A program made the position numbers and the translations under genes. A stretch of DNA of 64,000 bases from contig QZED01000001.1 of NCBI GenBank assembly GCA_009917405.1, positions 124,001-188,000 of the forward strand, written 5' to 3'. Origin of the DNA: a bacterium c-19. GTDB lineage: Bacteria > Bacillota_I > Bacilli_A > Erysipelotrichales > Erysipelotrichaceae. Of the stretch, positions 25,254-31,316 are shown piece after piece. The notes below the pieces were generated by a model. It was not told where the DNA came from. It worked only from the letters and a program-made list of their open reading frames with translations, and did no database searches. Within the stretch, counting starts at the first letter, position 1; each line of letters opens with the position of its first letter.

Positions 25254-28200
25254 ATGAAAAAATATGTACTAGGGATTGATATCGGAATCACCAGTGTAGG
25301 CTATGGAATCATTGATTCAGAAACAGGTGCTTTTGTGGATTATGGAGTGCGTCTGTTTAAGGAAGGTACGGCAGCTGAAAATGAAACAAGAAGAAAAACC
25401 AGAGGCAGAAGACGTTTAACAAGGAGAAGAAAAACGCGGTTGTCTGATATGCGCAAGTTGTTGCGCAACAATCATATTTTAAATGACAATTATCAACCGA
25501 TAAGCAATGTGTATGAATTACGTTGTAAAGGTCTGCATCAAAAATTGACTTCTGATGAATTGTCAGCAGTTATTTTACATATCACAAAGCATCGCGGCAG
25601 TATCCTTGAGACTGTAGAGGATGATATAGAAAAGAGTAAAGACGCAGAAAGTTTAAAGGCAACCTTACAAAAAAATGAGCAACTGATTAAGCAAGGGAAT
25701 TATATTTGTGAGATCCAGTTAGATCGACTGCGTTCACAAAATAAAATTAAAGGACACAGTAATAATTTTTCTACTAAAGATTATGTGAATGAATTAACGG
25801 AAATCTTAAAGCATCAAGGCTTATCCGATGATCTCAATGAACAGATTATCAATATTGTAAAGCGCAGACGCGCCTATTATGAAGGTCCGGGAAGTGAAAA
25901 ATCACCGACATCTTACGGGCGTTTTATCGAAGTAGACGGACAGATCCAACAAATTGACCTGATTGAAAAAATGCGCGGGAAATGCAGCATCTATCCTGAT
26001 CAATCAAGAGCACCTAAATTATCAGTAAGCGCTGAATTGTTTAATTTATTAAATGACTTAAATAATCTTTCGGTAAGTGGGGAGAAACTGACAGTAGATG
26101 AAAAAACAATGCTTTTGAAGCTTGCCAATGAAAAAGGCAATCTCACGTTAAAACAAATCGTGAAGAATTTAGAGGTAGAAGAAGCAGAGATCAAAGGTTA
26201 TCGTATTGATAAGAATGATAAGCCTTTATTCACTGAGTTAAAAGGTTATAAAAAAATTCGTAATATTTTCAAAAAAGAGGGCGTATCTGTATCGTTAAAG
26301 GATTATGAACTCATTGATTTTATAGTGGAAATATTAACCAATAAGAAAGGAATAGAAGAACGTAAACAAGCATTATTGGAATCGCAGTTTACTATCACTG
26401 AAGCTTTAGCCGATGCATTAGCGAATACAACCGGAGTCAGCGGTTATCATTCTTTATCATTAAAAGCCTTGCGACTATTGAATAAAGAGCTTTTTGAATC
26501 AACTTTTAATCAAATGCAACTGTTATATGAATTAAAGCTGTTTGGGGCAAATAAGAAATCTTACAAGGGTAAGAAAAACATTGAAGCAGATATTGATGCA
26601 ATTTTATCTCCTGTGGCGAAACGAGCGCAAAATGAAGCATTTAAGGTAATTAATGCATTGCGTAAAAAATACGGTGAATTTGACTCTATTGTTGTAGAAA
26701 CGACAAGAGATAAAAACAGTGATGAAAGAAAAAAGCGAATCAAGAAGTATCAGAGCCAAAATGAAGCTTCTTCCAAAGAAATGGATAAAATGTTAAAGGA
26801 AAGCGGCTACGATCCTGAAAAAATCAACGGAAAAACACGAATGAAAATCCGTTTGTATCAGCAACAACAAGGTAAAAGTGCTTATACAAATCAACCGTTA
26901 GAATTGCATCAAGTAATTAAAGATCCTTCTTATACGGAAATCGATCATATTATTCCGATTTCTGTTTCCTTAGATGATTCACAAAATAATAAGGTGCTGA
27001 CTTTGCGTTCAGAAAATCAAGCCAAGGGGAATTTAACTCCGTTTATGGCTTTCCAAGCAAATAAATTCAAGTATTCTTATGCCGAATTTAAAGCAAATGT
27101 ACTTGCGAATAAGAATATTCCGTATAAAAAGCGTCTGAACCTATTGAATGAGGAAAATATTACAAAAGAGGAAGTAGCGAAAAAATTCATCAACCGTAAT
27201 TTAAATGATACAAGTTACGCATGTCGTGTAGTGTTCAATACATTGGCAGATTATTTTAAAGACAATGATATTGATACAAAGGTTCATACAATGAACGGTA
27301 GACTTACAGATTTATTCCGTAAAAAAATAAATCTTTTAAAGGATCGTGACGAAGATTACCTGCATCATGCGATTGATGCACTGATTGTTGCCTCAATCAA
27401 AAAGATGAATTTATTGAATGGCTATTTAAGTAAGTATAGTTTAAATGATTTATATAATGAAACTACAGGTGAAGTTTTTACTGTTGTGGATGATGACAAA
27501 TTTTTCGATGAACGCTATATCCACTATATCATTGACTTAAAAACGATGTATTTGCAGAGTAATCAATATTATAATCATTTGATTGAACGAAAAGATATGA
27601 TTTATCCACCGATGAAAATTTCCCATAAAATAAACACCAAGCCTAATCGTAAAATTGCTGATGAGACTATTTACAGTACACGTTCAGTAGATGATGTTGA
27701 TTATTTGATAGAGAAAATCACTGATATTTACGATCCAAAGGAAAAGAAATGTAAAACGTTGGTTGAGGATATACTGAATCATAATGAGCAGAAATATTTA
27801 ATGGCTCAACATGATCCAAAAACATTTGATCTTATCAGGCAGATTGTAGAATACCATTATACTCAATACCATGAGGATCCGAAAATGTATAAAACAGAAA
27901 TAAAGAAAGGGAAATCAGAGATAAAATTAATCGGTGATAATCCATTGACGAGTTACAGAGAAGAGCACGGTCCGATAAGGAAATATTCAAAGAAAGGTAA
28001 CGGTCCTGAAATCAGTTCAATCAAATATCAAAGCGAAAAGTTAGGAAATCATATTGATATATCAGCTAATTATCAAGTAGATTCTAAAAAGGTAATTCTT
28101 AAACAGATCAGCCCATATCGTACTGATTTCTATCGATGCGACGACGGTAAATTCAGGTTTATAACGGTAAGGTATACTAATGTTGATTACCAAAAGAGTA

Positions 28201-28589
28201 CTCAAAAGTATGTTATTTCTGAAGAATGGTATGAAAAAGAAAAACAGAAGAAGGGAATCAAGGCATCAGATACATTCTTATTCTCATTGCATTGTGATGA
28301 ATTGATTGGAATTGTACGACAAAAAGGAAAACCTTATTACTATGATCTATCTACCGAAAAAGAGGGAGAAAAGATAATAGCTGACGGTATCCGTCCGGAA
28401 ATATTAAAGTTTACGGCGACTAATAATGATTCTACAAATATAATTGAAGTAAAACCGGTGTATACATATTGTAAAAAGCAATTAAAGTGCAGTATTTCAA
28501 ATTCAATCAATTTAAAAAAGTACGCCACTGACGTACTGGGAAATTTATACGAAGTTAAAGAAAATTGCTTGAAATTAGAGTTTGATTAG
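25254..28589 (+). CDS. cas9: CRISPR-associated endonuclease Cas9 (type II-A, compact)
   Basis: The 1111-residue RNA-guided nuclease resembles the S. aureus-type Cas9 along its whole length. RuvC-I Asp9 lies in YVLGIDIGITSVGYGIID, and an arginine-rich bridge helix follows (RRKTRGRRRLTRRRKTR). RuvC-II Glu482 is in IVVETTRD. HNH residues Asp564-His565 are in EIDHIIPISVS, with Asn588 in SEN. RuvC-III His705 and Asp708 are in HHAIDALIVAS. All catalytic residues are intact, and the C-terminus ends in the family pattern KKYATDVLGNLYEV. The ATG at 25254 follows AAAGGAG; an in-frame upstream ATG at 25218 precedes it. It is more AT-rich than its neighbours. The PAM cannot be read here. Confidence 0.97.
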   Translation: MKKYVLGIDIGITSVGYGIIDSETGAFVDYGVRLFKEGTAAENETRRKTRGRRRLTRRRKTRLSDMRKLLRNNHILNDNYQPISNVYELRCKGLHQKLTSDELSAVILHITKHRGSILETVEDDIEKSKDAESLKATLQKNEQLIKQGNYICEIQLDRLRSQNKIKGHSNNFSTKDYVNELTEILKHQGLSDDLNEQIINIVKRRRAYYEGPGSEKSPTSYGRFIEVDGQIQQIDLIEKMRGKCSIYPDQSRAPKLSVSAELFNLLNDLNNLSVSGEKLTVDEKTMLLKLANEKGNLTLKQIVKNLEVEEAEIKGYRIDKNDKPLFTELKGYKKIRNIFKKEGVSVSLKDYELIDFIVEILTNKKGIEERKQALLESQFTITEALADALANTTGVSGYHSLSLKALRLLNKELFESTFNQMQLLYELKLFGANKKSYKGKKNIEADIDAILSPVAKRAQNEAFKVINALRKKYGEFDSIVVETTRDKNSDERKKRIKKYQSQNEASSKEMDKMLKESGYDPEKINGKTRMKIRLYQQQQGKSAYTNQPLELHQVIKDPSYTEIDHIIPISVSLDDSQNNKVLTLRSENQAKGNLTPFMAFQANKFKYSYAEFKANVLANKNIPYKKRLNLLNEENITKEEVAKKFINRNLNDTSYACRVVFNTLADYFKDNDIDTKVHTMNGRLTDLFRKKINLLKDRDEDYLHHAIDALIVASIKKMNLLNGYLSKYSLNDLYNETTGEVFTVVDDDKFFDERYIHYIIDLKTMYLQSNQYYNHLIERKDMIYPPMKISHKINTKPNRKIADETIYSTRSVDDVDYLIEKITDIYDPKEKKCKTLVEDILNHNEQKYLMAQHDPKTFDLIRQIVEYHYTQYHEDPKMYKTEIKKGKSEIKLIGDNPLTSYREEHGPIRKYSKKGNGPEISSIKYQSEKLGNHIDISANYQVDSKKVILKQISPYRTDFYRCDDGKFRFITVRYTNVDYQKSTQKYVISEEWYEKEKQKKGIKASDTFLFSLHCDELIGIVRQKGKPYYYDLSTEKEGEKIIADGIRPEILKFTATNNDSTNIIEVKPVYTYCKKQLKCSISNSINLKKYATDVLGNLYEVKENCLKLEFD

Positions 28590-28597
28590 TGTATAAT
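28569..28597 (+). promoter_or_regulatory. Sigma-A promoter of the tracrRNA
   Basis: TTGAAA at 28569-28574 and TATAAT at 28592-28597 have exactly 17 bp between them. The -35 box lies inside the last codons of cas9. Transcription should begin near 28604. Confidence 0.82.
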
Positions 28598-28603
28598 ATA
28601 TAT

Positions 28604-28684
28604 GGTTATATTCTAGCAAAAATCTATATGACCTAGCAAAACAAGGGTTTATCCCGGATTCGGCTCTTCGGAGCCTTTTCTTTT
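28604..28684 (+). ncRNA. tracrRNA
   Basis: Bases 28609-28642 are an anti-repeat. The blocks TTCTAGCAAAAATC and TAGCAAAAC are exact reverse complements of the two ends of the array repeat, with a bulge between (tracr ATGACC against repeat ACCAT). After it come a small GGG/CCC nexus-like hairpin (28645-28655) and a terminator hairpin GGCTC-TTCG-GAGCC (28662-28675) with a T run to 28684. This is the S. aureus-like tracrRNA layout in an unusual position between cas9 and cas1. The ends are estimated from promoter and terminator. Confidence 0.9.
28662..28684 (+). terminator. tracrRNA terminator
   Basis: A 5-bp GC-rich stem with a TTCG loop is followed by TTTTCTTTT. It ends only 8 bp before the cas1 ATG. 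Confidence 0.85.
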
Positions 28685-28692
28685 GATCAATT

Positions 28693-29586
28693 ATGAGTTA
28701 TAGAGTAATCTATATAGAGAAATGCGAATATCTGCGGTTATACTTAGATAATTTAAAGGTCGAAGTAAAGAACGATTCACTTTTATTTCCGATTTCAGAT
28801 ATTCAAATTCTAGTGATTGATAATTATCAGTCTACCATGAGTGTACCATTAATAAATAAATTAACAGAATATAATGTATGTACAATTATATGCGGTGTAG
28901 ATCATCTACCGAAAAGTTATATATTACCGATGAACGGACATTTTTCCAGCAGCGGCAATATCTTAAAACAAATAAATTGGGATGAAAACAGAAAACAAAC
29001 CTTGCATTCTATGATTATTAAATACAAAATATTAAATCAAATTGAAATCCTGAAAATGAATAACAAAAGCTTTGATGTAATTAAAAAGCTTTATGAATTT
29101 GCGGATAGTATTGTAATTGGTGATAAAACAAACAGGGAAGGTTTAGCGGCTAAAATGTATTTCAGAGCTTTATTCGGGAATGATTTCATTCGTTTTGATG
29201 ATGATGTCATAAATGCCGGCTTAAATTACGGATATGCAATCTTTAGATCGTTGATAGCATCTATTATAGTTGCGAAAGGATATTTAGCGAACATAGGTAT
29301 ATTCCATAAAGGCAAACAAAATATGTTTAATTTAAGTGATGATATAATCGAAGTATTTCGTCCGATCGTTGATGATTTTGTATATAAGGAAATGAGCGAA
29401 GATATTCTTTTTAAGCAATCTCACCGTGAATCATTGATTCAATTAGCGAATAAAAAAATTGAGATTGATGAGCGCAAACAAACTGTAGCTAATGCAATAC
29501 ATTTATATTTGGACTCCGTTTTTAACTATTTGGATGGTAAAAATGATACCATTTTATATCCGTTACCCGTCATTTATGATTTATGA
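28693..29586 (+). CDS. cas1: CRISPR integrase Cas1
   Basis: Cas1 catalyses spacer integration. The 297-residue protein matches type II Cas1: an N-terminal beta domain (SYRVIYIEKCEYLRLYL), then the helical catalytic domain with NREGLAAKMYFRALFG (metal-binding Glu), GIFHKGKQNMFNLSDDIIEVFRP (His and acidic residue). No ribosome site is visible: the tracrRNA T run directly precedes the start region. Translation may depend on read-through transcripts or weak initiation. Its 3' end overlaps cas2. Confidence 0.95.
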   Translation: MSYRVIYIEKCEYLRLYLDNLKVEVKNDSLLFPISDIQILVIDNYQSTMSVPLINKLTEYNVCTIICGVDHLPKSYILPMNGHFSSSGNILKQINWDENRKQTLHSMIIKYKILNQIEILKMNNKSFDVIKKLYEFADSIVIGDKTNREGLAAKMYFRALFGNDFIRFDDDVINAGLNYGYAIFRSLIASIIVAKGYLANIGIFHKGKQNMFNLSDDIIEVFRPIVDDFVYKEMSEDILFKQSHRESLIQLANKKIEIDERKQTVANAIHLYLDSVFNYLDGKNDTILYPLPVIYDL

Positions 29587-29899
29587 ATTTATGCGATTGA
29601 TATTATTTTTTGATTTACCGGTTGTTTCCAAAGCAGACAGAAAGCTTTATGCATCCTTTAGAAAGTATTTGATATCCAATGGCTATCTGATGATGCAGTA
29701 TTCTGTTTATTGTAAACTGTTTGCGAATCGGGAAGCTGCTGTTAAGCATATGAATATACTGCAACGTAATGTACCTAAAAAAGGGCAGATAAGAGTTCTT
29801 TTAGTGACTGAAAAACAATATGCAAAAATAGAAATTATTGTTGGCGGCAGATCGAATCAGGAAACAATCGTAAACAGTGATTCATTCATAAAGCTATGA
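29576..29899 (+). CDS. cas2: CRISPR-associated protein Cas2
   Basis: Cas2 is the structural partner of Cas1 in the integration complex. The 107-residue protein has MRLILFFDLPVVSKADRK with the conserved Asp, then YLMMQYSVYCKLFANR and RVLLVTEKQYAKIEI. I chose the ATG at 29576, which overlaps the end of cas1 and matches the N-terminal length of streptococcal Cas2; the ATG at 29591 is the alternative. The open frame extends upstream without family similarity. Confidence 0.94.
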   Translation: MIYEFMRLILFFDLPVVSKADRKLYASFRKYLISNGYLMMQYSVYCKLFANREAAVKHMNILQRNVPKKGQIRVLLVTEKQYAKIEIIVGGRSNQETIVNSDSFIKL

Positions 29900-30768
29900 A
29901 TTTGATTCATATTAAAAACGGATCGGTTAATAAAGAATTCCAAATAAATCAAGTAAAGTATCTGCTTTGTAAGAACAACGATGATTATCCTCTTTATTCT
30001 ACTATTAAACAGTTTGTCAGCAAGGAGCATAGTGAATATAGGGAAGAGAATGATGTAAAGGCGAAGATTTTGATCGATGATCATGAGTTAAGCTTAAAGA
30101 ATAATTTGTTTATTGAGATAACGGATACGTATTCTTTTCATGAAGACCAGAAATTGAATTCTAGATCTTTAATGTTGAAATACCTAGAAATAAAATTGCA
30201 GCTTACAGATTTCTTTGACACAATAAATACGATTGATATCTTATTTCATACTTTATCAGATGAATTCAATGAAAACTCAGCATTTAAAGTTATGTTTCAA
30301 ACAGTAGGGTATAAACAGTTAGTAAAATTATTGTGTCCATATTATGGCGAGGATTATCAAAAGGATGAATTTGATCTTTCGCTGACAGAATTATTGAGCT
30401 TTCAAATTCAATTAATTGAATACATTGCGAAACATAATACTAAATATGATAATATCTTTGTTTATGGGAGACTGCATAATCCAAAACAATGTATTGTTGA
30501 ACAATTAAATTCGTTAAAGGAATGTAAGACAATGATATTTACTGATTATTTCAATGGTGCTATGCAGTTGAATGATATATGCTTAATTGAAAGGGATTTG
30601 ATTGATTTAGCTAATAGGGAAGCTTTTTATCGTTTGTTTTCTATGCGTTCATTCCGTTTTTTCACAATAGAGGAGGTTCAAGATATGATTATGAAGTATC
30701 TAAATACATGTTACACTCACACAGATAACGATATTTATCAAGAATTAGAGCGATTTTCTAAAAAGTAA
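29896..30768 (+). CDS. csn2: Type II-A adaptation protein Csn2
   Basis: Csn2 forms ring tetramers that bind DNA ends during spacer acquisition. The 290-residue protein starts in an ATGA overlap with cas2 and is the last cas gene before the array, the normal csn2 position. Family-like parts are the N-terminal beta region, the helical middle (LMLKYLEIKLQLTDFFDTINTIDILF), and IFVYGRLHNPK...MIFTDYF near the C-terminal half. It is longer than the short Streptococcus form (about 220) and shorter than the long form (about 350). The assignment is by position plus weak similarity. Confidence 0.85.
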   Translation: MNLIHIKNGSVNKEFQINQVKYLLCKNNDDYPLYSTIKQFVSKEHSEYREENDVKAKILIDDHELSLKNNLFIEITDTYSFHEDQKLNSRSLMLKYLEIKLQLTDFFDTINTIDILFHTLSDEFNENSAFKVMFQTVGYKQLVKLLCPYYGEDYQKDEFDLSLTELLSFQIQLIEYIAKHNTKYDNIFVYGRLHNPKQCIVEQLNSLKECKTMIFTDYFNGAMQLNDICLIERDLIDLANREAFYRLFSMRSFRFFTIEEVQDMIMKYLNTCYTHTDNDIYQELERFSKK

Positions 30769-30816
30769 ATGATTGATATATCTTAATGTCAAAAGTTATG
30801 CTATAATACTTTTGAG
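30769..30816 (+). promoter_or_regulatory. CRISPR leader with pre-crRNA promoter
   Basis: Only 48 bp separate csn2 from the first repeat. The gap contains an extended -10 box (TGCTATAAT; TATAAT at 30802-30807), which puts the start of transcription near 30814. It ends in TTTTGAG directly at repeat 1, close to the ATTTGAG leader-anchor known for one class of type II-A loci. No good -35 box is seen. Confidence 0.7.
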
Positions 30817-31316
30817 GTTTTGCTACCATATGGATTTTTGCTAGAATGATACAAAATGATCTCTACCAACAAACAGGACCCGGTTTTGCTACCATATGGA
30901 TTTTTGCTAGAATGATACTCTTTCGTCTCTTTACCGGTATTCCTTGCAGTTTTGCTACCATATGGATTTTTGCTAGAATGATACTAATTCTGATTTTTTA
31001 CGTTTTCATACTCAGTTTTGCTACCATATGGATTTTTGCTAGAATGATACCGACAATTCAAGTGAAAAGAAACCCTCTTTGTTTTGCTACCATATGGATT
31101 TTTGCTAGAATGATACTGATAAATCTTACTTGCAATTTATATTGACTGTTTTGCTACCATATGGATTTTTGCTAGAATGATACAGAATCAGTACATAATA
31201 ACACATTAGCGTTAGTTTTGCTACCATATGGATTTTTGCTAGAATGATACGGGTCAAATTGATATCCCTGAGCCATCGACGTTTTGCTACCATATGGATT
31301 TTTTCTAAAATCTAAA
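30817..31316 (+). CRISPR. CRISPR array, 8 repeats and 7 spacers
   Basis: The 36-bp repeat begins GTTTTGCTACCATATGG and ends TTTGCTAGAATGATAC. Repeats start at 30817, 30883, 30949, 31015, 31081, 31148, 31215 and 31281. Spacers are 30 bp (numbers 1-4 and 7) or 31 bp (5 and 6). Repeats 1-7 are identical. Repeat 8 is intact for 23 bases and then diverges, so the leader end is at 30817 and transcription runs plus, like the cas genes. The repeat pairs with the tracrRNA anti-repeat. Confidence 0.98.

What the first reader, a model, noticed from the sequence alone, without database searches (positions are those of the whole stretch)
28569..28700. tracrRNA between cas9 and cas1, with its terminator abutting the cas1 start
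The tracrRNA promoter overlaps the cas9 3' end and the tracrRNA T run stops 8 bp before the cas1 ATG. No ribosome site for cas1 is visible in that gap. The adaptation genes would then be expressed only from read-through and start inefficiently, so tracrRNA termination may set cas1-cas2-csn2 dosage.
Basis: partly seen in the sequence, partly recalled or inferred. Interest (0 to 1): 0.6.

Follow-up and report, generated by a model that had tools for sequence, protein, structure and literature searches.

The report
CRISPR tracrRNA terminator abuts cas1
In this gut bacterium's CRISPR-Cas9 locus the gene for the helper RNA (tracrRNA) sits between cas9 and the memory-making gene cas1, and its transcription stop signal ends 8 bases before cas1 with no ribosome-binding site; the layout is known, but this tight, ribosome-site-less form proves to be kept across a whole clade, which suggests (unproven) that spacer acquisition is held low by design.

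Summary
28569-28700 holds the tracrRNA gene of a type II-A system (cas9-tracr-cas1-cas2-csn2-array, Erysipelotrichaceae). The promoter is TTGAAA-17-TATAAT, with its -35 inside the last cas9 codons. The anti-repeat pairs with the array's own repeat; nexus and GGCTC-TTCG-GAGCC terminator follow. The T-tract ends at 28684, 8 nt before the cas1 ATG (28693). No Shine-Dalgarno (SD) lies between: cas1 has the 4th weakest anti-SD pairing of 61 forced-start genes on its contig.

Comparison adds most. In 32 relatives (Erysipelotrichia, Acholeplasmatales and allies) the T-tract ends 0-13 nt before ATG, and 28 cas1 genes lack an SD; none of 24 cas9 genes in those loci does. In Streptococcus, Listeria and Carnobacterium relatives tracrRNA sits in the same place, but further from cas1, and all 21 cas1 genes have an SD. 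The tight form is one old clade (29 of 31) plus two other lineages.

The layout itself is known (S. thermophilus CRISPR1, Mollicutes). Read-through-only transcription of cas1 is well supported. That this sets a low adaptation dosage is the likeliest mechanism but unmeasured; neutral compaction is the main rival. Three sister arrays share no spacer, so adaptation works or recently worked.

The parts
25254..28589 (+). cas9 (1111 aa, SaCas9/St1Cas9-like, type II-A)
   Evidence: NCBIfam TIGR01865 2.5e-198; PDB best matches SaCas9 and St1Cas9; SD AAAGGAG upstream
28569..28597 (+). tracrRNA promoter TTGAAA-17-TATAAT; -35 overlaps cas9 codons Leu-Lys, -10 lies just after the cas9 stop
   Evidence: -35 falls on an in-frame TTG leucine in 29 of 32 scored loci
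28604..28684 (+). tracrRNA (about 81 nt, start predicted): anti-repeat 28604-28642, nexus GGGTTTATCCC 28645-28655, terminator, U-tract
   Evidence: folds; anti-repeat complementary to each locus's own repeat
28662..28684 (+). intrinsic terminator GGCTC-TTCG-GAGCC + TTTTCTTTT
   Evidence: stem kept by compensatory changes, 19 distinct stems in 32 loci
28685..28692 (+). 8-nt spacer GATCAATT between T-tract and cas1 ATG, no SD
28693..29586 (+). cas1 (297 aa), forced ATG start
   Evidence: TIGR03639 2.4e-83; start conserved in 12 relatives
29591..29899 (+). cas2, starts 4 nt after the cas1 stop, no SD
   Evidence: TIGR01573
29896..30768 (+). csn2 (290 aa), ATGA overlap with cas2
   Evidence: no Pfam or NCBIfam hit but PADLOC Csn2 PDLC02129 1.4e-105
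30817..31316 (+). CRISPR array, 36-nt repeat, 7 spacers, last repeat degenerate

Best explanation
[quoted passage not shown] Its own promoter, embedded in the end of cas9, makes a short tracrRNA that ends at an intrinsic terminator (anatomy shown by sequence and comparison). Because nothing else lies before cas1, the tracrRNA is also the 5' leader of the cas1-cas2-csn2 message (follows from sequence). Transcripts from the cas9 promoter and from the tracrRNA promoter both have to pass this terminator to reach cas1, and the message that does is started without an SD at an AUG directly behind the U-tract (start inferred). cas2 and csn2 are translated by coupling to cas1 (inferred from the 4-nt gap and the ATGA overlap). 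The most likely result is a constant, two-step throttle (leaky termination, then weak initiation) that keeps the spacer-acquisition proteins well below Cas9 and tracrRNA. It is a fixed setting rather than a switch.
For: Same layout in all 32 relatives of the group: T-tract end to ATG 0-13 nt, stem end to ATG 11-21 nt. cas1 lacks an SD (> -4 kcal/mol) in 28 of 32 loci; cas9 of the same loci lacks one in 0 of 24. The host reads SDs: median -10.5 over 61 forced-start genes. Outgroup with tracrRNA in the same place but stem end 22-36 nt before ATG has an SD in 21 of 21 loci. Cas1 tree: 29 of 31 rows of one 99* clade keep the tight form, and it occurs in two further lineages. Terminator score is positive here (14.7) and in most of the group (median 22.1), lower in the outgroup (median -6.8). 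No SD before cas2, none or a weak one before csn2 in the window and its near relatives, with coupling overlaps. In S. pyogenes, over-expressing cas1-cas2-csn2 raises acquisition and high cas expression has a fitness cost (PMC11417352; PMC12216489), so a low setting would make sense.
Against: No transcript or protein data. The loss of the SD may simply follow from the gap being short. Random 20-mers of the contig lack an SD (> -4) 71% of the time, so 28 of 32 without SD shows absence of selection for an SD more than selection against one. The terminator score was calibrated on E. coli, and its hairpin term favours short stems. Adaptation clearly has happened: 7, 10 and 8 spacers in three sister genomes, none shared.
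Confidence: 0.6

Rival explanations
1. Neutral compaction. The tracrRNA cannot move and the gap behind it has shrunk; cas1 is translated well enough from an AU-rich SD-less leader, and nothing about adaptation dosage is being set.
For: AT-rich, compact genomes; the gap sequence itself is not conserved (TTGATCAATT, ATTTGCTAT, ACCCTTTTT, TTTTTGTCT). Two members carry an SD and their arrays are not extreme, 15 and 42 repeats. SD-less members also have long arrays, up to 35 repeats.
Against: Only 2 of 31 rows of a deep clade carry an SD in this gap, although SDs are the rule for other genes. The terminator is not decaying: it is held by compensatory changes.
Confidence: 0.3
2. Hidden start of the message: a cas1 transcript begins, or is cut, within or just after the U-tract, giving a near-leaderless mRNA that needs no SD.
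For: ATG directly behind a U-run, sometimes 0-4 nt; leaderless starts need no SD (general knowledge).
Against: Best promoter match in the tracrRNA body is 7 of 12, and no conserved -10 is seen before cas1 in relatives.
Confidence: 0.07
3. Coupling to a small upstream ORF: in the window a TTG at 28683 behind the GGAG of the terminator arm opens a 6-codon ORF that overlaps the cas1 start.
For: Present in the window and its three nearest relatives.
Against: Not conserved: 13 of 33 loci have no such ORF and the others differ in start, frame and SD.
Confidence: 0.02

Closest known systems
Streptococcus thermophilus CRISPR1 type II-A locus (cas9, tracrRNA, cas1, cas2, long csn2b, array)
   Same: Fonfara et al. 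(PMC3936727) single out its tracrRNA location and its longer Csn2 (Csn2b) within II-A. Streptococcus loci of this kind fetched here show tracrRNA transcribed toward cas1 from the cas9-cas1 gap, and Cas9 matches St1Cas9 over its full length.
   Different: The Streptococcus, Listeria and Carnobacterium relatives fetched here have 22-36 nt between stem and ATG and an SD in all 21; here 17 nt and no SD. S. thermophilus itself was not among the loci fetched.
Mollicutes type II-A loci (cas9, tracrRNA, cas1, cas2, array in that order; PMC6882279)
   Same: Same gene order, SaCas9-like Cas9, nexus plus terminator tracrRNA.
   Different: The passages read say nothing of the tracrRNA-cas1 distance or of ribosome sites. 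Acholeplasma relatives fetched here share the tight form.
S. pyogenes tracr-L autorepression of the cas operon (PMC11417352)
   Same: A tracrRNA gene product limits cas gene expression and thus spacer acquisition.
   Different: There a long tracrRNA guides Cas9 to the cas promoter. Here the only shared word of 9 nt or more between the tracrRNA region and the cas9 promoter region is the -10 box; the limit proposed is termination plus SD-less start, in cis.

Membership tests
tracrRNA of a type II CRISPR-Cas system | anti-repeat complementary to the array repeat | tested here: met
   covaries with the repeat across loci
tracrRNA of a type II CRISPR-Cas system | own promoter, nexus hairpin and terminator with U-tract | tested here: met
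   No Rfam family reached its gathering score anywhere in the window, so there is no library confirmation.
tracrRNA of a type II CRISPR-Cas system | transcribed, processed with crRNA by RNase III, bound by Cas9 | not testable with these tools
   no RNA data for this organism
CRISPR-Cas subtype II-A | cas9, cas1, cas2 and csn2 in one locus | tested here: met
tracr-L type autorepression | second upstream tracrRNA promoter and an about 11-nt guide match to the cas promoter beside a PAM | tested here: not met
   no match of 9 nt or more except the -10 box; no second strong promoter upstream. PAM unknown.
intrinsic terminator | GC-rich stem followed by T-tract, kept in relatives | tested here: met
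attenuator or antitermination switch | conserved alternative structure or ligand that removes the terminator | tested here: inconclusive
   single-sequence and dual-RNA folds keep the terminator hairpin; alternative structures were not searched systematically, and protein-driven antitermination cannot be tested

The most novel reading that the evidence does not exclude
The tracrRNA terminator is a feedback gate: Cas9 (or crRNA plus Cas9) binding the nascent tracrRNA changes termination, so the amount of free Cas9 and guide RNA sets how much Cas1-Cas2-Csn2 is made and hence how fast new spacers are acquired.
Probability: 0.05. Interest if true: 0.8.

Novelty: new variant of a known kind. Interest (0 to 1): 0.4.

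Why it matters
How type II-A systems keep spacer acquisition low enough to avoid self-immunity has one worked-out answer, tracr-L repression in S. pyogenes, which uses a long tracrRNA. In the group found here a different arrangement (tracrRNA terminator as the only leader of cas1, no ribosome site) is kept across many genera, while related Streptococcus loci keep a spaced ribosome site. If the arrangement throttles adaptation, it is a simple cis-acting dosage control that can be tested with a few point changes in a plasmid-borne locus. It also warns that tracrRNA predictions and cas1 transcription cannot be treated as separate units in these loci.

Tried and rejected
Alternative cas1 start: rejected, in-frame TGA directly upstream and next start at residue 41. 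Separate cas1 promoter: none above 7 of 12 in the gap. Coupling uORF in the terminator arm: present in the window, not conserved. tracr-L style guide against the cas9 promoter: no match. Start-region accessibility as the compensating feature: no more open than in the SD-bearing group (median unpaired probability 0.41 against 0.48). Rfam: no hit in the whole window. Plasmid collection with the tracrRNA: no match. Counting terminator covariation on a MAFFT alignment was dropped because the 3' arms slid (and one row, L089, was cut at wrong coordinates); stems were compared locus by locus instead. The comparison with other genes in short flanks of the relatives (36% without SD) is loose because it includes spurious ORFs; the contig-wide set is the better control. 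Paper searches for tracrRNA terminator read-through into cas1 found nothing direct, but the library lacks most subscription papers, including Chylinski 2013.

Full report
What is there. The window lies on contig C96 of a 2.24 Mb genome. Named relatives with the nearest Cas1 sequences are Erysipelotrichales isolates, Holdemanella and Floccifex. At 25254-31316 it carries a complete type II-A locus on the + strand: cas9 (1111 aa, nearest solved relatives SaCas9 and St1Cas9), tracrRNA, cas1, cas2, a 290-aa csn2 (invisible to Pfam and NCBIfam, but PADLOC Csn2 at 1.4e-105) and an array of seven spacers with a 36-nt repeat.

The observation. Every coordinate in the finding holds. The promoter TTGAAA-17-TATAAT matches 11 of 12 consensus bases and begins inside the last codons of cas9. 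It is one of four + strand sites this good in 64 kb. The anti-repeat pairs with the repeat at -40.4 kcal/mol and the dual RNA folds as expected, with nexus and terminator hairpins. The T-tract ends at 28684 and cas1 starts at 28693. The start cannot be elsewhere: an in-frame TGA ends at 28686 and the next in-frame start is residue 41.

The ribosome site. I measured duplex energy of the 20 nt before each start with the 16S tail of this genome (AUCACCUCCUUUCU; 16S found, tail printed). Among 61 genes of the contig whose ATG start is forced, the median is -10.5 kcal/mol; cas1 has -1.3, fourth weakest. So the absence of an SD is unusual in this genome.

Comparison. A Cas1 profile pulled 80 loci from the species collection, and twenty more stretches came from same-family genomes. 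They fall into clear groups. Group A (Erysipelotrichia, Acholeplasmatales and allied bins, 32 loci; a few contigs are labelled Alphaproteobacteria, PVC or Nealsonbacteria, probably mis-binned): stem end to ATG 11-21 nt, T-tract end to ATG 0-13 nt, 28 of 32 cas1 without SD, while 24 of 24 cas9 in the same loci have one. Group B (Streptococcus, Carnobacterium, Listeria, 21 loci): tracrRNA in the same gap, stem end to ATG 22-36 nt, SD in 21 of 21 cas1. The difference in distance gives p about 1e-9 by Mann-Whitney, which overstates the case because the loci are related. On the Cas1 tree the tight form fills one strongly supported clade (29 of 31 rows; the exceptions are Amedibacillus dolichus and an Erysipelothrix bin, both with a gained or kept AGAGGA). 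It also appears in two other lineages (L112/L114; L052, L053, L054, L056). Three changes are needed among loci that have tracrRNA in the gap.

Is the tracrRNA real? The -35 falls on an in-frame TTG leucine in 29 of 32 scored loci, although TTG is only 5-52% of leucine codons in these cas9 genes (loci not independent). The anti-repeat follows the repeat of its own locus wherever an array is held. Terminator stems are kept by changes on both sides, 19 distinct stems in 32 loci.

What it means for cas1. Nothing but the tracrRNA gene lies between cas9 and cas1, and no promoter-like site better than 7 of 12 lies inside it, so cas1 transcription must pass the tracrRNA terminator (inference from sequence). 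cas2 starts 4 nt after cas1 in nearly all group A loci, and csn2 overlaps cas2 by ATGA in most, with weak or no SDs in the window and its near relatives; some distant members have an SD before csn2. The module thus hangs on the cas1 start. Terminators of group A score higher than those of group B by the d'Aubenton Carafa formula (medians 22.1 and -6.8), mainly through better T-tracts; the formula is an E. coli calibration and I give it little weight. Together, group A looks set for little adaptation protein and group B for more. In S. pyogenes, more cas1-cas2-csn2 means more acquisition, and raised cas expression has a fitness cost (PMC11417352; PMC12216489).

Limits. Adaptation is not dead: the window, L059 and L070 have the same repeat and 7, 10 and 8 spacers with none in common, and SD-less loci carry up to 35 repeats. 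The throttle reading is therefore about rate. Compaction with no regulatory meaning remains a real rival, because a random 20-mer of this contig lacks an SD 71% of the time: the data show that an SD has not been required, more than that it has been selected against.

What is known. tracrRNA placement that differs within II-A, with S. thermophilus CRISPR1 singled out together with its longer Csn2, is described in PMC3936727, and the order cas9-tracrRNA-cas1-cas2 is standard in Mollicutes (PMC6882279). I found no paper that treats the tracrRNA terminator as the leader of cas1, within an open-licence library. tracr-L autorepression is the nearest regulatory idea and is not what is seen here.

Verdict. 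Observation confirmed; interpretation partly supported; known layout, with a clade-wide tight SD-less variant that makes a clean, testable case for dosage control of adaptation.

Noticed in passing
L112:5800-6000 and L114:5800-6000: In two uncultured Bacilli loci the cas9-cas1 gap holds two tandem anti-repeat-like copies ahead of one nexus and terminator; the terminator again ends 2 nt before cas1 without an SD.
   Followed up: partly
L070:6001-6890 (G086): cas1 reading frame is broken in a close relative whose cas9, tracrRNA and array are intact, so interference and adaptation may have come apart there.
   Followed up: no
window 30769-30816: Only 48 bp separate the csn2 stop from the first repeat, so the array leader and promoter (TATAAT near 30800) are squeezed in, and may reach into the csn2 end, much as the tracrRNA promoter is in cas9.
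   Followed up: no
window 28683-28703: A TTG behind the terminator's GGAG opens a 6-codon ORF overlapping the cas1 start; found only in the nearest relatives.
   Followed up: yes
L052, L053, L054, L056 upstream of cas1: A separate Cas1 lineage in the same family also has a tracrRNA (anti-repeat matches its array) whose T-tract runs up to cas1 without a strong SD.
   Followed up: partly
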